Origin: Eubacteriales bacterium
GTDB taxonomy: Bacteria; Bacillota; Clostridia; Lachnospirales; Lachnospiraceae
Assembly: GCA_030524785.1 (NCBI GenBank)
Contig: JAUNFZ010000007.1
Coordinates: 1-56,436 of the forward strand
Reading direction: 5' to 3'
Length of the DNA: 56,436 nt
A model generated the notes under the pieces. That model saw only the letters and a list, made by a program, of their open reading frames with translations. It was not told where the DNA came from and searched no databases. This document shows, piece after piece, positions 7,338 through 19,648 of the stretch (position 1 is the first letter of the stretch; every line of letters begins with the position of its first letter). The translations under genes were made by a program, and so were the position numbers.

Positions 7338-9299
7338 TCACTTCATCCCCCTTACCGCATTTTTTCCAGCCTTGATCTTGGTTACTAAAGGAATCTTCGA
7401 AGAACAGATATACTCACAGCATCTGCACTCAACGCAGTCCATCACGTTCTTGTCCTTCATTCCCTGCCAGTTTTCCTCATCCGCATATTTTGCAAAATAC
7501 AGCGGAGAAAGTTCCATGGGACATACGTCCACGCAGCGTCCGCATTTGATACAGGGCTGCTCTACCGTATGGTCCGTGTCAACAGCAATGATACCGTTGG
7601 AGCCCTTCATAATCGGCACATTCACATCCGGAAGTACAAATCCCATCATCGGGCCGCCGGCTTTTATCGTAATGTCGTCACCGGTCACACCGCCGCAGTA
7701 ATCAATCAGATCCTTGGTATTCGTACCGATCTTTACGATATAGTTGCCCGGATTCCTAAGTCTCTCGCCCGTTACTGTCACAACGCGCTCTACCAGAGGC
7801 ATCCCCTTCTGAATCGCATCGGAAATTGCTTTGACGGTGCTGATATTGCTTACAACGCATCCCACATCCGCCGGCAGTCCGCCGCTGGGCACCTGTCTTT
7901 TCATCACACGCTTAATCAGCATTTTCTCAGCGCCCTGGGGGTATTTCGTCTTAGCCACTACCACTTCGATTCCATCACAATCGGCCGTTTTTTCCTGTAA
8001 AAGCTTAATAGCATCCGGCTTATTGTCTTCAATAACGATCAGGCCCTTTTCGGCATTGACAGTTTTCATTACCGCCTTCAGGCCAAAAATCACATCATCC
8101 GCAAACTCCAGGAGAACTCTGTGGTCTGCCGTCAGAAGCGGTTCACATTCACAGCCGTTCAGAAGAATTGTATCGATAGGCTTCGGGGGTTTCAGTTTTA
8201 CCGAAGTCGGGAAACCGGCTCCGCCCATACCAACAATTCCCGCTTCGCGAACGATCTCCACAATCTCGTCCGGAGTCAGGCTTTCAAGATCTTTGTTCGG
8301 TTTTACTGATTCGTGCAGAGTATTTTTTCCGTCCGACCGAATAACAATGGACATACATTCGCCTCTTGTAGCATGTTTATGAGGCTCGATTGCAATTACT
8401 GTACCGCTGACGCTGGAGTGTACCGGGCTGCTGATAAACGCCGCAGCTTCTGCAATCTTCTGGCCGACCTTTACAGTATCTCCCACCTGCACCACAGGAT
8501 TCGCCGGAGCGCCTGCATGCATGGACAGAGGAATCACCACAACCTCCGGGTCAGGGAATTTTTTCAGAGGAAGATGCTCTGTAAACTCTTTGCGCTCCAG
8601 AGGATGAACGCCTCCGTAATAGCCCTCAAGCCTGTCCTCCCGTATGGACTTCACATAATCCTGTACAACCTTGAAATTGACTTTGGAGTAATCCCTCACC
8701 TGTACGGGCTGGTTTAAAAACTCGGAAAGGCGTCCCTGCTTTTCCAGCCTCTTGTATATTTTTTCCCAGGCGCAGTCTTTACTGCTGTCCACCTCGCATT
8801 TACCGTTCTTCGCGCCTCCGCACTGTCCGTTTACCAGGCTCTTGGAACAGTCGACGATGGGACAGATGCCTCCGGTGATATTCAGGTAGCACTGCGCGCA
8901 TGCGTCGCAGCTTTTCTTCGTCAGAGCCATGCCGTGGTGTCCCCGGTAATTCAGCGAATTGCTGGCCGCATACACCGGTTTTCCCGAAAGCTCTGCAACA
9001 GTCTGAATACCCAGGCCGCAGGAAACAACAAAAACATTCTCTGTGCCTTCCGGAATCATATCCTGCAGCTTCTTTTCCGTCTGTGTCTTATTGCACAGAA
9101 AGTCTACCCTGGCGCTGCCCGTAACCGTTTTTCCGCAATCCGCAGCAATCTTTTCAAATTCGCCGCAGTCCGGTTCATCCACGGTTTCAAATTCTTTGAA
9201 GCACTTGTTACAGGCAATAATGAACAGATGATCCTTATCGGCCAACAGGGATGCCAGTTCATCATTGCTTTTCAACTTATACTTGGTATAGTTTTCCAA
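7338..9299 (-). CDS. MetV-RnfC fusion (RnfC2-type electron-input subunit of MTHFR)
   Basis: 653 residues in two modules. Residues 1 to about 210 repeat the MetV fold (FIIACNKCFKEF, FVVSCGLGIQTV, then CDACAQCYLNITGGICPI and CSKSLVNGQCGG). Residues about 225 to 653 are RnfC/NuoF-like: a lipoyl-like N-part, GMGGAGFPT for flavin/NAD binding, GCECEPLLTADHR, and two 4Fe-4S motifs, CIKCGRCVDVCP and CVECRCCEYICS. The start is a TTG at 9299 behind GGAAGGTGA. RnfC2 of Acetobacterium feeds NADH electrons into MetVF; a similar role is expected here. It is the first gene of the operon; a promoter is proposed at 9425-9453. A membrane Rnf complex role is unlikely because no other rnf gene is adjacent. Confidence 0.88.
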   Translation of the reverse strand: MENYTKYKLKSNDELASLLADKDHLFIIACNKCFKEFETVDEPDCGEFEKIAADCGKTVTGSARVDFLCNKTQTEKKLQDMIPEGTENVFVVSCGLGIQTVAELSGKPVYAASNSLNYRGHHGMALTKKSCDACAQCYLNITGGICPIVDCSKSLVNGQCGGAKNGKCEVDSSKDCAWEKIYKRLEKQGRLSEFLNQPVQVRDYSKVNFKVVQDYVKSIREDRLEGYYGGVHPLERKEFTEHLPLKKFPDPEVVVIPLSMHAGAPANPVVQVGDTVKVGQKIAEAAAFISSPVHSSVSGTVIAIEPHKHATRGECMSIVIRSDGKNTLHESVKPNKDLESLTPDEIVEIVREAGIVGMGGAGFPTSVKLKPPKPIDTILLNGCECEPLLTADHRVLLEFADDVIFGLKAVMKTVNAEKGLIVIEDNKPDAIKLLQEKTADCDGIEVVVAKTKYPQGAEKMLIKRVMKRQVPSGGLPADVGCVVSNISTVKAISDAIQKGMPLVERVVTVTGERLRNPGNYIVKIGTNTKDLIDYCGGVTGDDITIKAGGPMMGFVLPDVNVPIMKGSNGIIAVDTDHTVEQPCIKCGRCVDVCPMELSPLYFAKYADEENWQGMKDKNVMDCVECRCCEYICSSKIPLVTKIKAGKNAVRGMK

Positions 9300-9567: not shown

Positions 9568-9639
9568 TATTATGACATTTTATGAAGACTGAAAGCAGAC
9601 TGGATATTTAAGCAGGAATTTGGGCGAGGTGAAATGGAG

Positions 9640-11337
9640 ATGGAAAAAAAGAGACTTCCAGTAGGAATTGAGCGTTTTAAAGAGCTGCAGATAGAAAATT
9701 TTTATTATGTGGATAAGACAAATTTCATTAAAGAGCTTTTGACAGGATGGGCGAAAGTGAATCTTTTCACGCGTCCGAGAAGATTCGGCAAATCTTTGAA
9801 CATGAGCATGCTGAAAGACTTTTTTGAACTGGGAACAGACAAAGAGATTTTTGCAAATTTGAAGATTTCAAAGGAAACGGCTCTTTGTAACGAGTATATG
9901 GGAAAATTTCCCGTGATATCAGTTTCTTTAAAGGGAATGAACGGGGTAACTTATGAACAGGCGCTTCAGATGGCAATCCAGATTGTACGCGGCGAAGCAA
10001 GGCGATTCCAGTACCTTTTAGACAGCGAGCGTCTTACGGCTTATGACAAGGAAGCTCTGATTGCTCTCCTGAGGGAGGATATGGGGGAAGGTGTTTTGTG
10101 CAGCAGCCTGAAAGTTTTATCTGAATTGCTGAAAAAGCACCATGGCTGCGAGGTGATCCTGCTTATTGATGAGTATGATGTGCCCCTGGCAAAAGCATTT
10201 GAACGCGGATATTATGACCGGATGATCGTCTTTATTCGTAATATGTTTGAATATGCGCTGAAAACGAACGACAGCCTGAAATTTGCGGTCCTGACCGGAT
10301 GTATGCGTATCTCAAAGGAAAGCATTTTTACAGGCCTGAATAATCTGAAGGTCCTGTCAATCGCAGAGGTACAATTTGATGAAGCGTTTGGTTTCACAGA
10401 CAGAGAAGTGAGGGAGATGCTGGAATATTATGGGCTCTCCGATCACTATGGCGAGATCAGGGAATGGTATGACGGCTACCAGTTTGGAAACGTGGAGGTA
10501 TACTGCCCCTGGGATGTGATCAACCATTGTGATGCGCTGCTGATAGATCCGGACGCACAGCCCAGGAATTACTGGACCAATACCAGCAGTAACGAAGCAG
10601 TCAGGAGATTCATCCAGGAATCGGACAAAGTAATGGTAAGACGTGAAATTGAGAAGCTGGTTGCCGGCGAAGCGATCACAAAAGAAGTCCACCAGGAGCT
10701 GACATACAATGACATGTACGATTCTATCGACAACCTGTGGAGCGTCCTGTTCACTACGGGATACCTTACCCAGAGGGGAAAACCGGTTGGAGATAATTTC
10801 CAGCTGGCAATTCCGAATATGGAAATCCGGAAAATCTTCACCACACAGATCATGGAATATTTTAAGGAGAATGTGCCGAAAAACGGAGAAGCCTTAAAAG
10901 AATTCTGTGAGGCACTGAAAAATAAAAATGCGGAGGGTGTGGAAAAGCAGCTGGGGGAATATCTGAAAAAGACCATCAGTATCCGGGATACCTTTGTAAA
11001 GAAACAGATGAAAGAAAATTTCTATCATGGTATCCTATTGGGAATCTTAGGGTTTGAGGATACATGGAGCGTTTCTTCCAATAAGGAATCCGGGGACGGC
11101 TACAGCGATATCATAGTGGAAACAGACGATGGCGAGACCGGTATCATATTGGAACTAAAATATGCAGAAGACGGAAGGTTGGATACGGCCTGCCATGAGG
11201 CGCTGGAGCAGATTGAACGGAAACAGTATGAGGAAGCCCTCCGGGATGAGGGCGTCCTCCATATCCTGAAATATGGGCTCGCCTTTTATAAGAAAAGGTG
11301 CCGGGTGATGTCTGCCGCCGATGCCAAACAACAATAG
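9640..11337 (+). CDS. AAA-ATPase-like / PD-(D/E)XK nuclease-like protein (DUF1703 type)
   Basis: 565 residues. Of two in-frame ATGs (9634, 9640) the second is preferred because GAGGTGA then lies at normal distance. Residues 1 to about 220 are the AAA_lke (PF09820-type) domain: LPVGIERFKEL and YYVDKT, a Walker A variant RPRRFGKS and Walker B EVILLIDEYD. The C-terminus has a PD-(D/E)XK core: YSDIIVET, then GIILELKYAEDG. This family is spread in many copies through gut Firmicutes and Bacteroidetes, and its function is not established; nuclease activity is suggested by fold only. The gene stands alone between convergent neighbours, with its stop seven bases from the stop of the secreted GLUG protein, and may be accessory. 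Confidence 0.85.
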   Translation: MEKKRLPVGIERFKELQIENFYYVDKTNFIKELLTGWAKVNLFTRPRRFGKSLNMSMLKDFFELGTDKEIFANLKISKETALCNEYMGKFPVISVSLKGMNGVTYEQALQMAIQIVRGEARRFQYLLDSERLTAYDKEALIALLREDMGEGVLCSSLKVLSELLKKHHGCEVILLIDEYDVPLAKAFERGYYDRMIVFIRNMFEYALKTNDSLKFAVLTGCMRISKESIFTGLNNLKVLSIAEVQFDEAFGFTDREVREMLEYYGLSDHYGEIREWYDGYQFGNVEVYCPWDVINHCDALLIDPDAQPRNYWTNTSSNEAVRRFIQESDKVMVRREIEKLVAGEAITKEVHQELTYNDMYDSIDNLWSVLFTTGYLTQRGKPVGDNFQLAIPNMEIRKIFTTQIMEYFKENVPKNGEALKEFCEALKNKNAEGVEKQLGEYLKKTISIRDTFVKKQMKENFYHGILLGILGFEDTWSVSSNKESGDGYSDIIVETDDGETGIILELKYAEDGRLDTACHEALEQIERKQYEEALRDEGVLHILKYGLAFYKKRCRVMSAADAKQQ

Positions 11338-11344
11338 CACCCGC

Positions 11345-13519
11345 TTATTTTTTCTCTCCCACATCCGGCAGATCCCCGTTGCCCATACCGCGTTCTGCGC
11401 CGGAATATGTACAGTTTTCCACCTGTACGGAGTAGTCTTCTTCGCCGCTGGCATTGCCGATAATGCCGCCAATGTAATTGCGGTACACGATCCTGCCCGT
11501 TTTGTCCTGATACTCCTTTGGGTCGTTTATATGAATGTCGCCCGTGCTGTGGCAGTCCCTTAACACAAAGTAAGCGTCCTCCCCGTTGACGTACCTGGCG
11601 TCGTTCCCGTTATTATCCGTGGACAGATACAGGCTCCTGCCGATCTTTCCGATCACCCCTCCGGCAATCCTTGAAAGTGTAAATGACACGCTGTCCGCGA
11701 TCTCAGTCTTTTGTTCTTCCGTAAGATGGCTGTTATCGATAAACAATTCGCCGCTGTTGACACATCCTTCGATGGTACTCGGTATGCCTGCCATCCCCCA
11801 GCTCCCGGCAATTCCGCCCAGATAGCCGTTGATCTGCGTGACCGTGATTTTGCCGCTATTGCTGCAGTCCTTCAGTGTCAGCAGACTCTTTTTATTTCCT
11901 TCCTTTTTCACCGGGCAGTCCGCGCATCCCAGAATCCCGCCGGCGCCTGTTTCTCCGGTAACGGCGCCTTCGTTGCGGCAGCTCTCTATAGTAACATTCG
12001 CCGTATCGTCGTCATCCACTAATGTATAGATCCACTGCGCAAGGATACCGGCGCTGTACAACCCGTCCTCAGAGGTACAAAGCGTGCCCGTATTGACGCA
12101 GTCTCTGATCAGCACGTCGCCCGACCACGTCGTCATCAGTCCCGCAATCCCGCCGACCATTCCCTGTGACAGATCCGCCTCGTTGCGGCAATTTTCCACC
12201 GCCAGATTATACCCGTGGTCATTGTCTCCCTGACAGCTCAGTTTGCCGGCAATGCCGCCCGTATTGCCTCCGGTGTAGGATACAACCGTCCCGCTGTTCA
12301 CACAGTTTTCAATCCGCAGGCACCAGTCATTATGATCGTTGACGGCTTCCCCTACGATACCGCCCACCGACATGGTTCCCGATACGGAACCTGTATTTTT
12401 ACAGTCCGTGACCGTCGCCACGCGGCTCATATATTTTCCGCTCCCGGTGGCGCTCATAAACATCTTTCCGGCGATACCGCCCGCGCACACATCCGTCCCG
12501 GCAGAGGTCACGCCCTCTTTCATCACACAGTTGACCGTTCCCGCGTTTTCACAGCCGGAAATGATCCCGCCGCCGTATCCAGCAATGCCTCCTGTATTTA
12601 CGCTCATGGTTCCAAAATTAATCGTACCGCGGTTGACGCAGTTTGTCAGGTTGCCGCCGTTTTCGGCAGCTATACCGCCGATCGAACCCATCGAATCCTC
12701 GCGCACCTGATTGATCGTGCCGCCAAAAACGCAGTTCTGTACGGTTGAAAACGGGCCGCGCCGGTCGTCATCCTCCGTATATTCTTGATCGACGTCGTCA
12801 AAATAAGAACGTCCTCCGGCAACAGCGCCGCAGACGCCGCCCGCATCGCCGTCATAAACATCAATGACAATATTGCTCGTGCAGTCCGCCACCAGCGACT
12901 CTCCGTATACGCTGGCTGCAATACCTCCCACACGCGTTTCCACGCCGGACACACAGATATAAGACTTCTCCAGCGTCACACTCTTAATGACGGCGTCCCG
13001 AATCTCATCGAACAGCCCGTAGGCCTTCTCGTAGCTTTCGTTGTTGATATTAATATACATGCCGGATATAACGTGACCGTTCCCGTCAAAAGAACCCTTA
13101 AACGAGTCAAGGCCGTCTCCGCCGATTGGTCGCCAGTTGTACTGTGGGCCGTTTTGCGCCCACTGCTCAAAATCGGCCGTATCGTTCAGCTCGATATCCG
13201 CCGTCAGCACATAATACGCTTCTCTATAGCCCTTTTCGCCGTCTCCCTGCGCCTCCAGACGCATCCGTTCTTCCATCAGGGCCAACTGCCCGGCCGTCGC
13301 GATCTGGTAAGGGTCGTTCTGCGTTCCCGTCCCTCCGGCAAACTCCTCCGAAGCCTCAAGGTATACCGGCCCCGGCAGATCGCGGGTGACATATTCATAC
13401 CCCGCAGTCTGTGTTTCCTGCTGTATTTCCTGCTGTGGTTCTTCCTCCGCATTTACGCTACCAGTCATCAATGTGACGCACAAAAGGGCGCAGGCCGCCA
13501 ATACCGTCCGTTTATTCAT
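11345..13519 (-). CDS. Secreted GLUG-repeat beta-helix protein
   Basis: 724 residues, ATG at 13519 with AGGAGGCGGAG upstream. A signal peptide (LLCVTLMTGSVNA then EEE) directs export. After an N-terminal segment with GTQNDPYQIATAGQL, the body is built of about a dozen imperfect repeats of 35-60 residues, each with a C-x-N-x-G core (for example NCVNRGTI, GCENAGTV, NCVNSGTV, DCSNSGKI, GCVNSGEL) followed by GGIAG. This GLUG-type pattern predicts a right-handed beta-helix with cysteines stacked in a ladder. There is no LPXTG or S-layer anchor; the end is charged. It lies 92 bases downstream of the sensor kinase pair with no clear terminator, so it may be co-transcribed with, or a target of, that system. 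The binding partner is unknown. Confidence 0.8.
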   Translation of the reverse strand: MNKRTVLAACALLCVTLMTGSVNAEEEPQQEIQQETQTAGYEYVTRDLPGPVYLEASEEFAGGTGTQNDPYQIATAGQLALMEERMRLEAQGDGEKGYREAYYVLTADIELNDTADFEQWAQNGPQYNWRPIGGDGLDSFKGSFDGNGHVISGMYININNESYEKAYGLFDEIRDAVIKSVTLEKSYICVSGVETRVGGIAASVYGESLVADCTSNIVIDVYDGDAGGVCGAVAGGRSYFDDVDQEYTEDDDRRGPFSTVQNCVFGGTINQVREDSMGSIGGIAAENGGNLTNCVNRGTINFGTMSVNTGGIAGYGGGIISGCENAGTVNCVMKEGVTSAGTDVCAGGIAGKMFMSATGSGKYMSRVATVTDCKNTGSVSGTMSVGGIVGEAVNDHNDWCLRIENCVNSGTVVSYTGGNTGGIAGKLSCQGDNDHGYNLAVENCRNEADLSQGMVGGIAGLMTTWSGDVLIRDCVNTGTLCTSEDGLYSAGILAQWIYTLVDDDDTANVTIESCRNEGAVTGETGAGGILGCADCPVKKEGNKKSLLTLKDCSNSGKITVTQINGYLGGIAGSWGMAGIPSTIEGCVNSGELFIDNSHLTEEQKTEIADSVSFTLSRIAGGVIGKIGRSLYLSTDNNGNDARYVNGEDAYFVLRDCHSTGDIHINDPKEYQDKTGRIVYRNYIGGIIGNASGEEDYSVQVENCTYSGAERGMGNGDLPDVGEKK

Positions 13520-13611
13520 ATTCTCCGCCTCCTTTAGAATCTCCGCTCATTTTTCTTTAAGCTTATCATTTTCCAAAGGAGTTCTGTTTTCCCATTTCGT
13601 CGAACCGCACT

Positions 13612-14919
13612 CTAATTTCGTATTCTCAAGCTGATCTGCGCAGTAAAGCTTTCGTTTTCATATGACGTGCGGAAATCGCCGTCGTATTTTCGGGCAATGT
13701 CCGCCAGAATCTTATGACCGTAACCGGTGCCCCAGATCTTATTTTTGTGGTTTGCCAACGCCGTATTTTCGCACTTTATGATTAGATAGCCCTGCACAGC
13801 CCCGCCCGTCAGGGTGATCGCGGACGCTTTTCCCAACGCTTTTGCTTCCCTGCACGCCCTGACCGCGTTGTTCGTCAAATTGCTGAAGATCATGCAAAAA
13901 TCCAGTTCCGCGATTCCCGCCGTGTCCGGGATCGCCAGATCCACGCGCAGCGAAATGCCCTCTGCTTCGCATATTTTTTGTTTTTCCGCCAAAACTGCGT
14001 TGACAACCGGCACCGCGCAGAACGGATATTCTTTTGTAGCCGCAATGCGCACGGACAAATCCTGAAGCGCCGTCTCCGCCTCGCTATTTTCTCCCCGTTC
14101 AAGCAGCTCCAGTATAGAAGACAGGATGTTCTGATAATTTTCGCGTAATTGTTCCAGTTCCCGGCGGCGGACTTCAACCTGAGCGTAATGCGCGCTCTTT
14201 AGTTCTCCCTCGCGCTGAAGACGGCGAATCTTTTCCTGCGCTTCACGTTTTTCCAACTGGTTGGAGTAAAGCATGACCACGCCGACTTCCAGCACGATGA
14301 ATCCCCCGGCGTAACTGAGATATATGCCGTATCCGACATCGAAGATATCCCCAGGCCGTCCGGCCACGCATACCAGTATGCACAGAAATACCAGCTGCAG
14401 CATAACCGCGATCCATACGGGGCTCGCCTTCCGTCTTTTATTTTTCCGCAGTCTCTGCACAGCAAACAGGTAAATCATATTAAATAAGATCGTTACCGCT
14501 GTAACCATAACGCTGCGTTCCACAAGAGCGGGGTTTGAAAAATCGGCCGCCATAAAATCCATATTTTTTACGTCCCCCAAAAGCAGATACAAAAGCATCT
14601 CCGCAAATACCGTCTGCATGTCCAGCAAAACGCCGTGCGTAAACTTGATCCATAGCCTGTCGCCATAAAACCTGATCAGCACAAACGTCTGCGCCAAAAG
14701 TATTAAGGTCGTATGGATCCCGCCGTAATACACCGGCGGCATTACAAAGAAACTTTTGACCGCCACCCAGATAAGGCCTGAAAGCGTCCATGCGGCGATC
14801 CTCGTCAGCTTTGTGCCTCTGCGCGCCGTCAGCAGTCCCTCAAGGCAAACCCCGCCCACAACAAGCGTCAGCCCCTGCGCCACGATATTGATAATTTTTA
14901 AATAAAGCCCTCCGCTCAC
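13612..14919 (-). CDS. Membrane sensor with GHKL ATPase domain but no phospho-acceptor His (kinase-pair member 2)
   Basis: 435 residues from a GTG at 14919, 13 bases after the stop of the partner gene, with AGGGAG upstream. The N-terminal 210 residues hold about six or seven membrane helices; a coiled-coil (about 215-260) leads to a dimerisation helix and then an intact GHKL ATPase domain with N-box FSNLTNNAVRACREA and G-box GTGYGHKIL. Where AgrC-type kinases carry HDXXN, this protein reads LRENYQN: Glu260 (codon 14140-14142) replaces the histidine. It can therefore bind ATP but cannot carry the phosphoryl group at the normal place. Its upstream neighbour has the His and lacks this domain, which suggests the two work as a heterodimer. 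Confidence 0.85.
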   Translation of the reverse strand: MSGGLYLKIINIVAQGLTLVVGGVCLEGLLTARRGTKLTRIAAWTLSGLIWVAVKSFFVMPPVYYGGIHTTLILLAQTFVLIRFYGDRLWIKFTHGVLLDMQTVFAEMLLYLLLGDVKNMDFMAADFSNPALVERSVMVTAVTILFNMIYLFAVQRLRKNKRRKASPVWIAVMLQLVFLCILVCVAGRPGDIFDVGYGIYLSYAGGFIVLEVGVVMLYSNQLEKREAQEKIRRLQREGELKSAHYAQVEVRRRELEQLRENYQNILSSILELLERGENSEAETALQDLSVRIAATKEYPFCAVPVVNAVLAEKQKICEAEGISLRVDLAIPDTAGIAELDFCMIFSNLTNNAVRACREAKALGKASAITLTGGAVQGYLIIKCENTALANHKNKIWGTGYGHKILADIARKYDGDFRTSYENESFTAQISLRIRN

Positions 14920-14932
14920 ACGCTCTCTCCCT

Positions 14933-15835
14933 CTAGTCTTCTGAAACGCTGATCCGCTCCCGCAGATCGGCCAGCATCTTTTTCGCCTCGTCGCACCGTT
15001 CGTTTTTTACAAGGAACAATACCGAAGAAAGAATATTGTTATAATCGTGGCGCAGTTTCGCCATTTCCTCCCTGCGCGCCTCGATCTGCGCGTAGCGGAT
15101 CTTCTCCAGCTCCATAGCCTGCGCCAGCCGCTGCGCTTCTCTCTGCATTTCGCGTTTCTCCATATGATTCATATAAAACATCGCCAGCGCAAATTCCCAG
15201 ACGGTCCAACTGCATATCATTGCCATATACACATGTGAATCCCCGATCGCCTGTTGCGATCTGCTGTTCCACATGATCCAGAACATCAAAAACATCGGCA
15301 GCAGCACGGCGATCCATACAGGGCTTGCCGCCTCCCGCCCCTTTTTCTTCCTTCTGAATACGGCCATCGTATATACAACATTCATCAAAATAGTCAGCGC
15401 GGCGATTATCACCGTGCGTTCCGCCATTGCTGCCGACTGAAACGACGCCTGCATATTCTGAAGATCCAGCCCCTGTGTTCCGCCCATGAGCACATAAAGC
15501 AGAGCATCCGCTAAAACATTCTGCAAAAGGATTATGCTTGCATGGGCCAGCTTGATCCACGGTTTATCGCAGTAAAAATATTGCAGCATGAATATGTAGT
15601 ACAGCGTCCCAAGGATAGGATTAATCCTGATTACATATCTATTTGTCTGCGGAAAAAAGCATTTAATGCAGATGATCATACTGCCAATAATGCTCCAAAG
15701 TAAAATCCTCACCGCACGCGAGCTTCTGTTTTCGCGCGGCGTCAGCAGGACGTCTACGCAAACACCCATCTCTGTGACAGAAATGCACTGCGCGACCGCC
15801 GAGATCCACTGATAAACAACACCGCTCTCTGTCAT
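14933..15835 (-). CDS. Membrane sensor with phospho-acceptor His but no ATPase domain (kinase-pair member 1)
   Basis: 300 residues. The ATG at 15835 overlaps the response-regulator stop in ATGA, so translation is coupled; the longer open frame upstream lies inside the regulator gene. The architecture of the first 260 residues matches the next gene: multi-helix membrane domain, a basic RRKKKG loop, then a coiled coil (EKIRYAQIEARREEMAKL). The H-box is intact, LRHDYNNILSS, with His263 (codon 15047-15049). The protein stops at a TAG 37 residues later, exactly where its paralogue enters the GHKL domain. The 13-base gap to the next gene holds no ATPase remnant. It can be phosphorylated only by another protein, most simply the adjacent member 2. 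Confidence 0.85.
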   Translation of the reverse strand: MTESGVVYQWISAVAQCISVTEMGVCVDVLLTPRENRSSRAVRILLWSIIGSMIICIKCFFPQTNRYVIRINPILGTLYYIFMLQYFYCDKPWIKLAHASIILLQNVLADALLYVLMGGTQGLDLQNMQASFQSAAMAERTVIIAALTILMNVVYTMAVFRRKKKGREAASPVWIAVLLPMFLMFWIMWNSRSQQAIGDSHVYMAMICSWTVWEFALAMFYMNHMEKREMQREAQRLAQAMELEKIRYAQIEARREEMAKLRHDYNNILSSVLFLVKNERCDEAKKMLADLRERISVSED

Positions 15836-16542
15836 ATCGTCTGACCCAAATGCAGAAAGTAGCTTTTCCGCACCCTTTCCTGATGGATTTTGCTGACGGG
15901 CACCCTCCGTCCGTCCGAAAAGCAAAGATCATTGCCCTCCATATACCTGATCCGGTTCATATTCACAAGAAAGCTTTTGTGGCACTGAATAAACGACGAC
16001 GGAAGCTGTTTCTGAAAATCACTGATCTTCCCGTAAACAGAGTATGTTTCTTCTTCCGTATGAATGGAAACCCGATGGTTATTGCTTTCCAGATACAAAA
16101 CGCGGTCTGCCGCTATGATATGTTTCTTTCCTCTGACCGAAAACGTAAACACGTTCTTTGTTTCTTTCCTTTTGCAGATCTTATCCAGATATTGTCCGAG
16201 AAGCTTCCTGTCGGGAGGCTTCACAAGATATCCGGCAGGATTCGCGTCCGCCAGAAAAATCTGTTGTATGTATTTGTCGTGATATCCGGTCACATAAATC
16301 AGCTGCATCTGGGGAGCATACCGGAAAAGTTCCTTCACACACCTGATGCCGCTTTCTTCCTTGTCAAATTCTATATCCATAAAAACGGCGTCAAACTCCT
16401 TTTGCCGTTTCCCTATCGTCTCCATTAAGTGCTCCGGATTCTCGTATAAAGCAACTTCCTCCACACGTTCGTCCGCCTCCAGAGCTTCTTTCATTTCCTG
16501 TAAAAATAACCGGTTGTCGTCACATACTGCAAGTCTTAACAC
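15832..16542 (-). CDS. LytTR-family response regulator (AgrA/LytR type)
   Basis: 236 residues from a GTG at 16542, chosen because GGGGAG lies at the right distance and the chain then opens MLRLAVCDDN, the normal receiver start. Receiver domain 1-120: Asp8/Asp9 acid pair, phospho-acceptor Asp56 in AVFMDIEF, Lys near 106 in YLVKPPD. A LytTR DNA-binding domain follows (about 130-236: FSVRGKKHIIAADRVLYLES, then FIQCHKSFLVNM). It is the first gene of the operon, overlapping the His-bearing sensor by four bases. LytTR regulators typically bind paired direct repeats upstream of peptide, toxin or surface-protein genes; the secreted GLUG protein downstream is a candidate target. Confidence 0.9.
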   Translation of the reverse strand: MLRLAVCDDNRLFLQEMKEALEADERVEEVALYENPEHLMETIGKRQKEFDAVFMDIEFDKEESGIRCVKELFRYAPQMQLIYVTGYHDKYIQQIFLADANPAGYLVKPPDRKLLGQYLDKICKRKETKNVFTFSVRGKKHIIAADRVLYLESNNHRVSIHTEEETYSVYGKISDFQKQLPSSFIQCHKSFLVNMNRIRYMEGNDLCFSDGRRVPVSKIHQERVRKSYFLHLGQTI

Positions 16543-16579: not shown

Positions 16580-16608
16580 ATTATATCATGTCGTATGCAC
16601 GCTCACAA
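16580..16608 (-). promoter_or_regulatory. Sigma-A promoter of the LytTR/kinase-pair operon
   Basis: Minus strand TTGTGA (16603-16608), a 17-base spacer and a perfect TATAAT (16580-16585). The predicted start of transcription near 16573 leaves a leader of about 30 bases before the GTG at 16542, which supports that start over the ATG further upstream at 16581. Confidence 0.75.
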
Positions 16609-16674
16609 TTTGCAATTTCAGCCAATTCTGTCGAAAAGGCATATAATTTCGTCGTTTTCCCCTCTGTAAAGCAA

Positions 16675-16732: not shown

Positions 16733-17536
16733 TCAGCGTTTCACATATCCCTGTTCCATCATACTGGCGTGCGTAAGATCCATGGACATCAGTCCGCCAT
16801 TCTCGCCGGTCGTTGTCAAAAGCCCGCTGTCTTCCGCTTTTTTCAGAATCTCCGGATCGTCCAGATTATCAACCTTGTAGGTAAATCTGTGATAGGTCGC
16901 TCCGATATTGGAGTCGTACGTCAAGATACCCAGCGAATCGTACTTTGAAAAATACTCTCTCATTCCATCATCCAACGTCTGCCCGTCCACTTCCGCAGTC
17001 GCAAGCTCCGTGTAGATTGTTTCCTGGAACATAGTGATCACATCATCATGATACGCAAAATCCAGACAATGAACCGATCCGTCCTCGTCCACTTTTGCGT
17101 AGGACGCGGTATCCCCCAGTGTGACAAGCGGTCCTTTCACAATATACCTGTCACTGAATATCTTCATATATTCCGGGTTATCCTCCGACTGTCCTGCAGC
17201 CGTCTGGGTGTCCGCAGCGCTGCCTGCGTCGCTTCCCGCCGTGCCGGATCCTTCCGTTGATAATAAAACACTGGCGGACGGACGGTCCTTTACGTAGGAA
17301 CCCGCCATCATTTTTCCTACCCCTTGTCCGACCGCTGTCGCTGCGGCAACCACTAAAATAGTGATGAAAATACTATTTTTCCTCTTTTTCTTCACCTGCT
17401 TTGCAGGCTTAGGCGATTCCTGCCTTCCTGACCTGGCCGCCGACGGCTGCGGTCCGCTCTGCGCCAGTCTCGCGCCGCAAGAGCCGCAGAACAGAGCGTC
17501 ATCCGGAATTTCTTTTCCGCATTTTGGACAAAACAT
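16733..17536 (-). CDS. Zinc-ribbon membrane-anchored protein
   Basis: 267 residues, ATG at 17536 after GGAGGGAAGGTT. The first 25 residues form a double-CxxC zinc ribbon (MFCPKCGKEIPDDALFCGSC). A basic Pro/Lys-rich linker, one transmembrane helix (about 55-78, IFITILVVAAATAVGQGVG) and an extracytoplasmic domain of about 180 residues follow. The external part begins with a Ser/Gly/Ala-rich stretch and then a folded region without a recognised domain. Topology should be ribbon inside, domain outside. It belongs to a group with the small membrane protein, the coiled-coil ribbon protein and another ribbon-TM protein upstream. Function unknown; similar proteins are abundant in Clostridia and are generally uncharacterised. 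Confidence 0.75.
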   Translation of the reverse strand: MFCPKCGKEIPDDALFCGSCGARLAQSGPQPSAARSGRQESPKPAKQVKKKRKNSIFITILVVAAATAVGQGVGKMMAGSYVKDRPSASVLLSTEGSGTAGSDAGSAADTQTAAGQSEDNPEYMKIFSDRYIVKGPLVTLGDTASYAKVDEDGSVHCLDFAYHDDVITMFQETIYTELATAEVDGQTLDDGMREYFSKYDSLGILTYDSNIGATYHRFTYKVDNLDDPEILKKAEDSGLLTTTGENGGLMSMDLTHASMMEQGYVKR

Positions 17537-17570
17537 AACCTTCCCTCCTATGTAATCTGTTGCATACTAT

Positions 17571-17747
17571 TTATTTTTCTTTCTTAGCGTTTACAACCAA
17601 CAGGATTACAGCGATAATCGCCGGTGCAAAATATCCCAGCGTCATAAAAATTCCGCCGCCAAATATCCTTTCCAGGCTTCCTCCCGCAAGCCCGCCCAGC
17701 AGCGCCAAAACCTGAATTACCAAAAGAACAATCGCCACTTTCTTCAT
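17571..17747 (-). CDS. Small two-helix membrane protein
   Basis: 58 residues from the ATG at 17747, which follows AAAGGAGAAAAAATT; a longer frame starting at 17771 lacks such a site. Two hydrophobic segments (VAIVLLVIQVLALLGGLAGG and the last 25 residues before NAKKEK) are separated by a short SLERIFGGG loop. No family is recognised. It lies between two zinc-ribbon genes (gaps of 34 and 100 bases) and is probably co-transcribed with them. Confidence 0.7.
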   Translation of the reverse strand: MKKVAIVLLVIQVLALLGGLAGGSLERIFGGGIFMTLGYFAPAIIAVILLVVNAKKEK

Positions 17748-17847
17748 AATTTTTTCTCCTTTTCCATTCAAAAATTAAGAGCTTACCCTGTCTATATTTT
17801 ATCATCCTCAAAAAGATTTTTTTCAATTAATTCTGTTGCCCTGCCTG

Positions 17848-18498
17848 TTATTTTCGATCTTTCGCGTCAAGTCTCTGCCCGCATTTATGGCAAAATTGAC
17901 TGCCTGTGGGTACTGACGCGCGGCACTTCGGACAGATCATATCCGCCCGCTCCTTTGACTGTGATTCGCGCTCCGGCTTTGGCGCTCTCCTGCGGTCCAT
18001 GTCAAAACCGCAATAAACACAGAACCGGCTACCTGACGGCACTAACCTGCGGCACTGGGGACAGGCAAACATGGCGACATTCTGCTCTTTCGGCGCGGCA
18101 GCCTTTGTCTCCTCCTGCTTCTGGGCCCCGGCTTTTGTCTCCTCCTGTTTTTCCGTCGCGGCCTTTATCTTCTCCGGCCCTGTCGCCCCGGCTTTTATCT
18201 CCTCCTGTTTTTCCGGCGCGGCTTCTATCTTCTCCTGCCCTGCCGCAGCTTCTCCTGCGCCCGCAGTCTGTTTCCCGTCCTGAAGTTCGCCCTGAAGTTC
18301 TTTTATCCGCTGCTGCAGCTTTGCAATTTCTTCCTGTTTTTTGCGTTCCGCCTCCAGTTGTTCCTTACGCAGTCTCTCCAGTTCTGCCTGGCGCCGTTCC
18401 TCCCCGCGCTTTTTCTGTATCAGTTCCTGTGCCTTTGCAATCACGCCCTCAAGTTCCCCGATCGACAGCGCATCTAATTTTTCCCATAATTCTTTCAT
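17848..18498 (-). CDS. Coiled-coil protein with two C-terminal zinc ribbons and a repeat linker
   Basis: 216 residues; ATG at 18498 with a modest AGGTAG site. Residues about 20-75 are a charged coiled coil (EERRQAELERLRKEQLEAER). Residues 75-140 are a Lys/Glu/Ala linker made of imperfect repeats (KQEEIKAGA, KQEETKAGA, KQEETKAAA). Two ribbon modules end the protein: CPQCRRLVPSGSRFCVYCG and CPKCRASVPTGSQFCHKCG. No signal peptide or membrane helix is seen, so it is cytoplasmic and may act as a soluble partner of the flanking membrane ribbon proteins. The linker repeats look like recent in-frame duplication. No function can be assigned. Confidence 0.72.
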   Translation of the reverse strand: MKELWEKLDALSIGELEGVIAKAQELIQKKRGEERRQAELERLRKEQLEAERKKQEEIAKLQQRIKELQGELQDGKQTAGAGEAAAGQEKIEAAPEKQEEIKAGATGPEKIKAATEKQEETKAGAQKQEETKAAAPKEQNVAMFACPQCRRLVPSGSRFCVYCGFDMDRRRAPKPERESQSKERADMICPKCRASVPTGSQFCHKCGQRLDAKDRK

Positions 18499-18517
18499 TC
18501 TACCTTCTCTTTTCTCT

Positions 18518-19648
18518 CTATATTTCTCTGTCCCGCCACGAAGTTTCGTTCTCCTCGATCATCTCAAATCCATTATCCTGCAAAAATTGTCCACATTCCA
18601 CCACAAGCAGGAAACCATCCTGCACGGGCAGATCAAAACACTGGGCGGCAAGGGATACTGCCTCGGGATTTCCTTCATTTAGCTTGTCAAACTCCATGTA
18701 GCTCCAAAAATAATCCGAATCCCATTCTCCTTCCCTTGTACCGATAGTAATGAGATCCGCCGAAGCGCTCTGCCTGCTCTTTTCCTCCAACGCCGTATTT
18801 TTTGATACAATATCCGCGTAACCATCGACGTCTGAATGAATACTGACCTCATACCTGACCCGTCTTACATAGATGGAATCTTCCTCATAATACAATGTGA
18901 TGTCACAGCTGTCATTTTCGCCCCCTATTCCCTTCAATTGAAAATGTTTATACCCGCTGCCGCGCAGCACCTGATCCTCCGGTCCTCTTGCATTGCGGAA
19001 AGCTTCCTCTGTTATTACCCCGTTCTCCGCTTCACAGTCCATAAATTCCGCTGTCAGTTCCGCCATGTTTTGGTCTTCATCCAAGCGCGCAAGAACATAC
19101 TCTACCCTGTATCCGTCAGACTGGGGATCAGCAGAGATATTGATGCTGGAGGACAGATACGCAGAATCGCCAGCTTTCAGCCCCTCCAACCGGGCCTTTG
19201 CCGTTTCCGCATCATTTTTAAATTCATCAGCATCTATGAGGTCCGCACTGTACATTGTGCCCCGGATCAGAAAAACTCTGCCGTCCCGATAGGTATAGGT
19301 TACAATCGATCTTCCCTCATTGTCATTGTATGCAGGCACAAGTGTCGTTTCGCCCACATAACTTTCCGTACTGTCTTCTGTTTTCTCCTGCCCTGCCGCA
19401 TCATTTGAGGAACCGAAATCAAAGCTATCCGGCGTATCAAACGGCGTGGGCACTTTTAGCCGGTCAGCTCCGGTTGCAAAATATCCGATCACAAAACACG
19501 CGGCAACGGCCACGATTGCCAGAATAATCCTAAGCGGTCTCTTTTTCTTTGCTTTTTTGGCGTGCGGCGAAGCGCTTTGATCCGCGCCGCAGTGATTACA
19601 AAATCTTGCTTCGTCCGGAAGCTCTTTCCCACACTTTTTGCAAAACAT
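18518..19648 (-). CDS. Zinc-ribbon membrane-anchored protein (larger paralogue)
   Basis: 376 residues, ATG at 19648. Same plan as the protein ending at 16733: N-terminal ribbon (MFCKKCGKELPDEARFCNHC), basic linker, one membrane helix (about 38-60, IILAIVAVAACFVIGYFATG) and a large external part of about 310 residues. The external part starts with a Ser/Asp-rich stalk and continues with an alpha/beta-rich domain without recognised motifs. It is the first gene of the four-gene zinc-ribbon group; the next gene follows after 19 bases. It may sense or handle an extracytoplasmic ligand while the ribbon contacts cytoplasmic partners, but that is only a topological inference. Confidence 0.75.
   Translation of the reverse strand: MFCKKCGKELPDEARFCNHCGADQSASPHAKKAKKKRPLRIILAIVAVAACFVIGYFATGADRLKVPTPFDTPDSFDFGSSNDAAGQEKTEDSTESYVGETTLVPAYNDNEGRSIVTYTYRDGRVFLIRGTMYSADLIDADEFKNDAETAKARLEGLKAGDSAYLSSSINISADPQSDGYRVEYVLARLDEDQNMAELTAEFMDCEAENGVITEEAFRNARGPEDQVLRGSGYKHFQLKGIGGENDSCDITLYYEEDSIYVRRVRYEVSIHSDVDGYADIVSKNTALEEKSRQSASADLITIGTREGEWDSDYFWSYMEFDKLNEGNPEAVSLAAQCFDLPVQDGFLLVVECGQFLQDNGFEMIEENETSWRDREI

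What the first reader, a model, noticed from the sequence alone, without database searches (positions are those of the whole stretch)
13612..16542. Split sensor kinase: one paralogue keeps the histidine, the other keeps the ATPase domain
Two adjacent, clearly related membrane sensors share one operon with a LytTR regulator. The first (14933-15835) has an intact H-box, LRHDYNNILSS with His263, but ends at a stop codon just where the ATPase domain should begin. The second (13612-14919) has a full GHKL domain (N-box FSNLTNNAVRA, G-box GTGYGHKIL), but its H-box reads LRENYQNILSS, with Glu260 for His, Asn for Asp and Gln for Asn. Each lacks exactly what the other has. Only a heterodimer phosphorylating in trans would give a working kinase. 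This would be an obligate two-protein AND-gate sensor, which I do not know as a described AgrC-type arrangement.
Basis: partly seen in the sequence, partly recalled or inferred. Interest (0 to 1): 0.88.

Follow-up and report, generated by a model that had tools for sequence, protein, structure and literature searches.

The report
Histidine kinase split into two proteins
A bacterial membrane sensor normally made as one protein is here divided into a receptor that keeps the phosphorylation site and a partner that keeps the ATP-using engine, and the same division appears to have arisen several times in related bacteria, in one case with four receptors beside a single engine.

Summary
The 300-aa sensor (14933-15835) has an intact H-box and stops before the ATPase domain; the 435-aa paralogue (13612-14919) has the GHKL ATPase but Glu in place of His. 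It is not a strain-specific nonsense mutation: the same complementary pairing beside a LytTR regulator occurs in nine species (eight genera, two families). All 15 ATPase-less sensors in those loci keep the His; all nine ATPase-bearing partners have lost it, to seven different residues, whereas 30 of 30 control kinases keep it. One species has four truncated sensors and one partner; another has both halves fused in one 589-aa protein. The ATPase-domain tree needs six changes of the His and rejects a single origin (AU p = 1.9e-5). Paired 21-bp-spaced repeats lie upstream of the operon and of the next secreted-protein gene, in the window and in one relative. Split kinases are known (CheA3/CheA4); my searches found no report of this AgrC/LytTR type. 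Trans-phosphorylation itself is inferred; no biochemistry or structure model was possible.

The parts
15832..16542 (-). LytTR response regulator (GTG start, 236 aa), receiver Asp in FMDIEFD intact
14933..15835 (-). Receptor subunit 'T': multi-TM sensor + DHp with His263 (LRHDYNNILSS), no ATPase domain; start overlaps regulator stop by 4 bp
13612..14919 (-). Catalytic subunit 'hub': multi-TM + His-less DHp (LRENYQNILSS, Glu260) + GHKL ATPase (N-box FSNLTNNAVRA, G-box GTGYGHKIL)
16625..16654 (-). Paired direct repeat CGACGAAAT-N12-CGACAGAAT, predicted site of the LytTR regulator upstream of its own operon
16580..16608 (-). Promoter-like TTGTGA-N17-TATAAT, 16 bp after the repeat pair (read by eye, no scan run)
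   Evidence: sequence
13594..13623 (-). Second repeat pair ATACGAAAT-N12-CGACGAAAT, overlapping the end of the hub gene, upstream of the secreted-protein gene
11345..13519 (-). Probable target: 724-aa protein with a signal-peptide-like N-terminus (by eye) and a sub-threshold GLUG match

Best explanation
The three genes encode one two-component system whose histidine kinase is divided between two membrane proteins. T is the receptor subunit: it senses a signal through its membrane domain and carries the phosphorylatable His. The hub is the catalytic subunit: it pairs with T through its DHp helices and its ATPase domain phosphorylates T's His in trans; neither makes phospho-His alone. T~P passes the phosphoryl group to the LytTR regulator, which binds 21-bp-spaced repeats to drive its own operon and the adjacent secreted-protein gene. 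Shown by sequence: anatomy, recurrence, complementary loss, fusion, more than one origin, purifying selection, repeat pairs. Inferred: heterodimer, trans-phosphorylation, phosphotransfer, DNA binding, activation.
For: Complementary loss in nine loci: T's 15 of 15 with His, hubs 9 of 9 without; no ATPase match in the 11 of 15 T's scanned with Pfam, the other four end as early; 8 of 9 hubs pass the HATPase_c_5 cut-off. Control 30 of 30 with His. The N-box Asn is invariant in the seven hubs and the fusion aligned. Ka/Ks 0.13 in the ATPase domain of two congeneric hubs, 0.18-0.40 in T pairs with a finite Ks (several Ks exceed 1, so rough). Natural T+hub fusion in G156. Four T's with one hub in G290. 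Regulator Asp kept in all nine loci and the fusion locus. More than one origin of His loss. Repeat pairs in the window and at both corresponding places in G290. In AgrC each His is phosphorylated by the other protomer's kinase domain (passage in PMC6066662 citing George Cisar 2009).
Against: No biochemistry and no structure model (tool off). Of ten loci with a T beside an ATPase-bearing kinase, one (G382) has a partner that keeps its His. G661 has two T's, no hub beside them and a frame-broken regulator; G435 has a lone T; the kinases read elsewhere in those two genomes (two in each) keep their His, so T's without a hub exist. The G339 hub frame breaks near the G-box. The G496 hub matches only 25 of 102 HATPase_c_5 positions in its best stretch. 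T's were found with a profile that contains the His, which may favour His-bearing hits. All nine loci come from multi-contig draft genomes. TM counts rest on hydropathy, with uncertain starts for some ORFs.
Confidence: 0.77

Rival explanations
1. T is not a phosphodonor but a modulator: it uses its DHp to titrate or dephosphorylate the regulator, and the hub is a pseudo-kinase whose ATP binding only changes shape (DivL-like). The regulator is phosphorylated by another kinase or a small phosphodonor.
For: DHp motifs also serve phosphatase activity (the H-E/D-x-x-N/T motif is named in PMC3591291). DivL is a repurposed kinase (start of abstract and passages of PMC4211667). T's without a hub exist in G661 and G435.
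Against: His kept in 15 of 15 T's beside a hub; ATPase motifs kept and under purifying selection; the T+hub fusion has the content of a full kinase in one chain.
Confidence: 0.13
2. The hub autophosphorylates on another residue and is a complete kinase; T's are decoy or accessory receptors.
For: Five of nine hubs have a His 16 residues before the H-box site.
Against: No His is common to all nine hubs from -30 to +35; the G437 and G267 hubs have none there.
Confidence: 0.05
3. Decay: tandem duplicates in which truncation and His loss are degenerative accidents.
For: Frame-broken regulator in G661 and frame-broken hub in G339; tandem full-length paralogues exist (G168).
Against: Recurrence in eight genera; Ka/Ks below 0.5 in every pair where it could be computed; in the nine loci the two copies never lose the same part; shared truncation point in the window and four G290 genes.
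Confidence: 0.04

Closest known systems
CheA3/CheA4 of Rhodobacter sphaeroides (split chemotaxis kinase)
   Same: Phospho-accepting His and kinase domain on separate proteins; only the mixture with ATP gives phospho-CheA3 (passages of PMC3591291).
   Different: CheA proteins with P1/P3/P4/P5 domains in a cytoplasmic chemotaxis cluster; here membrane receptors with a DHp H-box, a GHKL (HATPase_c_5) partner, a LytTR regulator, and up to four receptors per hub.
Hik36-Hik43 of Synechocystis (split CheA/PilL)
   Same: Described as a split histidine kinase (passages of PMC7656254).
   Different: CheA-like, pilus system; not a pair of paralogous membrane sensors.
AgrC and other LytTR-linked sensor kinases
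   Same: Multi-TM sensor, DHp, HATPase_c_5, adjacent LytTR regulator; trans phosphorylation between protomers reported for AgrC (PMC6066662 passage). Sensor 1 matches the NCBIfam AgrC model weakly (25.2 bits, cut-off 500).
   Different: AgrC is one protein acting as a dimer; here the two functions sit on two paralogues.
Pseudo-histidine kinases such as DivL
   Same: Hub lacks the H-box His.
   Different: DivL's catalytic output domain is repurposed as an input (start of abstract of PMC4211667); here ATPase motifs are kept and His-bearing partners lie beside the hub in all nine loci.

Membership tests
Split histidine kinase (functional class) | Phosphorylatable His and catalytic ATPase domain on separate co-encoded proteins | tested here: met
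Split histidine kinase (functional class) | Neither protein autophosphorylates alone, the mixture does | not testable with these tools
   needs a phosphotransfer assay
CheA-type split kinase | CheA P1/P3/P4/P5 domains | tested here: not met
   Pfam scans show HATPase_c_5 and SPOB_a-like matches, no CheA domain
AgrC-type LytTR two-component system | Multi-TM sensor with HATPase_c_5 kinase next to a LytTR regulator | tested here: met
   (TM by hydropathy only)
AgrC-type LytTR two-component system | H-box His and ATPase in the same protein | tested here: not met
AgrC (equivalog NF046015) | Score above the curated cut-off (500 bits) | tested here: not met
   sensor 1 scores 25.2; no AgrC match listed for sensor 2
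AgrC-type quorum sensing | AgrB/AgrD genes nearby | not tested
   no dedicated search was run
LytTR Regulatory System (LRS) | LytTR regulator without phosphosignalling plus a membrane inhibitor (as I understand it; passages of PMC6193735 only) | tested here: not met
   regulator has a receiver domain with Asp

The most novel reading that the evidence does not exclude
A receptor-subunit / catalytic-subunit class of membrane histidine kinase: one ATP-using hub serves one to four interchangeable His-bearing receptors, so several signals feed one regulator. It has evolved repeatedly from tandem-duplicated LytTR-linked kinases through visible stages: tandem full-length kinases, truncated copy beside an intact kinase, His-less hub, shortened hub, and fusion.
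Probability: 0.68. Interest if true: 0.86.

Novelty: new variant of a known kind. Interest (0 to 1): 0.79.

Why it matters
Sensor histidine kinases are usually treated as self-sufficient homodimers. A recurrent natural division into receptor and engine would show that trans-phosphorylation is not just a detail of homodimers but a route to modular wiring, like receptors sharing a kinase in animals. It gives a natural test bed for dimer specificity, signal integration and the bistability predicted for split bifunctional kinases (PMC3591291), and it warns that such receptors may be dismissed as truncated and such hubs as degenerate.

Tried and rejected
Strain-specific nonsense mutation: rejected, homologues end at the same place. 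Plasmid homologues: none. A first genome-contig scan with sensor 1 alone gave no confirmed relative; a second, with alignment A2, gave one, Lachnospiraceae bacterium UBA9414, whose contig has the length and match coordinates of G290's. No solved structure matches the hub by sequence.

The first regex for the control kinases was too narrow and was redone (one contig-edge kinase read). The controls are the best-scoring HATPase_c_5 match of each of 30 genomes, not a random draw.

Repeats: similarity between the window's two upstream regions taken alone was not significant (80 of 300 shuffles). Counting any 21-bp-spaced 7-of-9 repeat without a motif, shuffles reached the observed number in 39 of 500 (window regulator), 7 of 500 (window target), 66 of 500 (G290 regulator) and 1 of 500 (G290 target); the case rests on the shared half-site. 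In the whole genome, at up to three mismatches, the pattern has 7 places against 10 for its reversed control; only the two operon places have two mismatches. Upstream of the other regulators looked at (eight regions, plus one downstream of G437) the best ACGAAATT pair scored 7-10 of 16, except 13 in G841, not tested further; G339 has a different perfect 21-bp-spaced repeat.

Hits read and set aside as not split: G020 and G382 contig 32 (one-TM full kinases with His), G231, G811, G223, G672 and G850 (full kinases or other proteins), G961 (contig edge, His kept), G442 (kinase cut between TM and DHp parts), G194 (odd, see noticed). Hits with long open frames were mostly not fetched for their neighbours, so further pairs may have been missed.

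Full report
WHAT IS IN THE WINDOW. On the minus strand, in order: a LytTR response regulator (15832-16542), sensor 1 (14933-15835) and sensor 2 (13612-14919), with a 4-bp ATGA overlap between regulator and sensor 1 and 13 bp between the sensors. Sensor 1 carries LRHDYNNILSS with His263 and ends 37 aa later. Sensor 2 carries LRENYQNILSS (Glu260) and a HATPase_c_5 domain above the Pfam cut-off. They are 37% identical across the shared part. I call sensor 1 'T' (receptor with His, no ATPase) and sensor 2 'hub' (ATPase, no His).

IS IT A TRUNCATION ACCIDENT? No. Among 397 genomes of the same family, genome G290 holds one contig with regulator, four T's and one hub. Those four T's are 41-45% identical to sensor 1 and all end 37 aa after the His, like the window's; the G290 hub has Arg at the His site.

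HOW WIDESPREAD. I built profiles of the DHp region and searched 397 same-family genomes, 391 of the class, 297 more complete ones of the family (overlapping the first set), 3 of G496's family and 120 of another family, at E up to 1e-9. I read the neighbourhoods of the hits in short open frames and of some others; most hits in long open frames were not followed. Nine loci show the complementary pair: G000 (window), G290, G294, G339, G437, G267, G883, G496, G841; eight genera, two families. T's 15 of 15 with His, ending 24-47 aa after it; hubs 9 of 9 without His (Glu, Arg, Gln, Asp, Ala, Ser, Ala, Arg, Gly). Pfam finds HATPase_c_5 above cut-off in 8 of 9 hubs (G339's frame breaks near the G-box, and G496's best stretch covers only 25 of 102 positions) and no ATPase in the 11 T's scanned of 15. 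Gene order differs: regulator-T-hub in five loci, regulator-hub-T in four.

CONTROL. A search with HATPase_c_5 itself in 60 genomes of the family gave 30 loci, the best match of each of 30 genomes, not chosen by H-box; 30 of 30 kinases have His-Asp or His-Glu at the H-box. Against 0 of 9 hubs, Fisher p = 5e-9; counting G382's His-bearing partner, 1 of 10, p = 4e-8. A caution: the DHp profile contains the His, so a T without His might be missed, although the same profile did find His-less hubs.

EXCEPTIONS. G382 has a truncated sensor beside a full-length kinase that keeps its His, perhaps an intermediate. G661 has two T's, no hub beside them and a frame-broken regulator; G435 has a lone T. Searching both genomes with the hub ATPase profile gave only matches at the level of unrelated kinases (best 7e-23 and 8e-24, against 3.7e-23 for an ordinary kinase of the window's genome), and the two read in each genome keep their His; one further G661 match at a contig edge and four further G435 matches were not read. 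G194 has a 165-aa truncated sensor beside an ATPase domain joined to a flagellin-like stretch, which I did not count.

FUSION. In G156, congeneric with G841, a single 589-aa protein contains T (His kept) followed by a second membrane stretch, a region that by eye is a His-less DHp, and the ATPase domain. This is the fusion expected if T and hub work as one complex.

EVOLUTION. A tree of the ATPase domain was built from 27 rows: eight hubs (G339 left out for its broken frame), the fusion, nine His-bearing relatives and nine of the 30 controls. His loss needs six changes, at least three forced by well-supported branches; holding all His-less rows together is rejected, AU p = 1.9e-5, with the usual caution for long branches. 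His-bearing kinases nest among hubs (G961 with the window and G290 hubs). Stages are visible: tandem full-length kinases (five in G168), truncated copy beside an intact kinase (G382), His-less hub, shortened hub, fusion. Ka/Ks is 0.18-0.40 among T pairs with a finite Ks and 0.14 between the G267 and G883 hubs (0.13 in the ATPase part); several Ks exceed 1 or were saturated, so these are rough. In G290, for three of the six T pairs split by region, the DHp parts are 79-87% and the membrane parts 45-77% identical: probably different inputs, common output.

AND GATE OR SHARED ENGINE. By hydropathy the T's have 4-7 membrane segments, the window and G290 hubs 6 and 7, and the other seven hubs 2-4. 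In most loci the hub has lost much of the sensing part, and in G290 four receptors share one hub. This favours receptor plus catalytic subunit over an AND gate; for the window, where the hub keeps its membrane part, dual sensing remains open.

ALTERNATIVE PHOSPHO-SITE. No His is common to the nine hubs from -30 to +35 of the H-box site; two hubs have none there, five have one at -16.

OUTPUT. The regulator Asp is kept in all nine loci and in the fusion locus. Upstream of the window's regulator lies CGACGAAAT-N12-CGACAGAAT and upstream of the next secreted-protein gene ATACGAAAT-N12-CGACGAAAT; the joint pattern at up to three mismatches occurs only at these two places in the window (expected 0.04; 0 of 100 shuffles with two matches). 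In the whole genome it occurs at seven places, these two the best, against ten for the reversed control, so only the best two are meaningful. In G290 a matching half-site pair at the same spacing lies upstream of the regulator and of the next secreted-protein gene; the paired half-site score was reached by 0 of 2000 shuffles in each of the four regions. The half-site was derived from the window, so the G290 result is the independent one; without the half-site, 21-bp-spaced repeats alone are unremarkable in the two regulator regions (39 and 66 of 500 shuffles). Most LytTR regulatory operons described in PMC6193735 have direct repeats separated by 12 bp (passages). A promoter-like TTGTGA-N17-TATAAT lies 16 bp after the window's repeat pair (read). 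I infer autoregulation and control of the secreted protein.

COMPARISON. CheA3/CheA4 is the proven precedent for a split kinase, and that paper notes that 1,556 of 42,417 HisKA proteins in SMART lack HATPase, some of which could be split (passages of PMC3591291). Hik36-Hik43 is another CheA-like case (passages of PMC7656254). For AgrC, phosphorylation of each His by the other protomer's kinase domain is reported (PMC6066662 passage citing George Cisar 2009; the original was not held). Paper searches showed no AgrC/LytTR-type split kinase; these cover open-licence PMC papers only, and I judged them from listings and from passages of the papers cited.

MECHANISM AND STATUS. Shown by sequence: complementary anatomy, recurrence, more than one origin, selection on both halves, fusion, repeat pairs. 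Inferred: T-hub heterodimer, phosphorylation of T by the hub in trans, transfer to the regulator, promoter activation. The signal is unknown.

Noticed in passing
L079 4339-5631 (-), G194: A 430-aa ORF joins a flagellin-like N-terminus to an AgrC-like ATPase domain, beside a 165-aa truncated sensor (H-box IRHEF) and a LytTR regulator; a real insertion or an assembly chimera.
   Followed up: partly
window 16733-19648 (-): Three zinc-ribbon proteins (Pfam) just upstream of the split-kinase operon; by eye similar genes lie beside the T's of G661 (L098) and the fusion of G156 (L121).
   Followed up: no
window 9634-11337 (+): 567-aa AAA-ATPase_like + PD-(D/E)XK nuclease protein (PF09820, PF08011) facing the operon's probable target gene.
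   Followed up: no
L097 464-1723 (-), G442: A LytTR-linked kinase cut by a stop between its membrane part and its DHp-ATPase part: another kind of split or a lesion.
   Followed up: partly
L118 5693-6556 (-), G435: Lone ATPase-less sensor with H-box in a single-contig genome, without regulator or kinase beside it.
   Followed up: partly
L034 11471-13753 (+), G290: Secreted protein downstream of the hub with a sortase-like C-terminus (by eye) and a predicted regulator site upstream.
   Followed up: partly
L040 about 8000-8290 (-), G339: A perfect 9-bp direct repeat (ATTCTGGCA) at 21-bp spacing, possibly the LytTR site of that locus.
   Followed up: no
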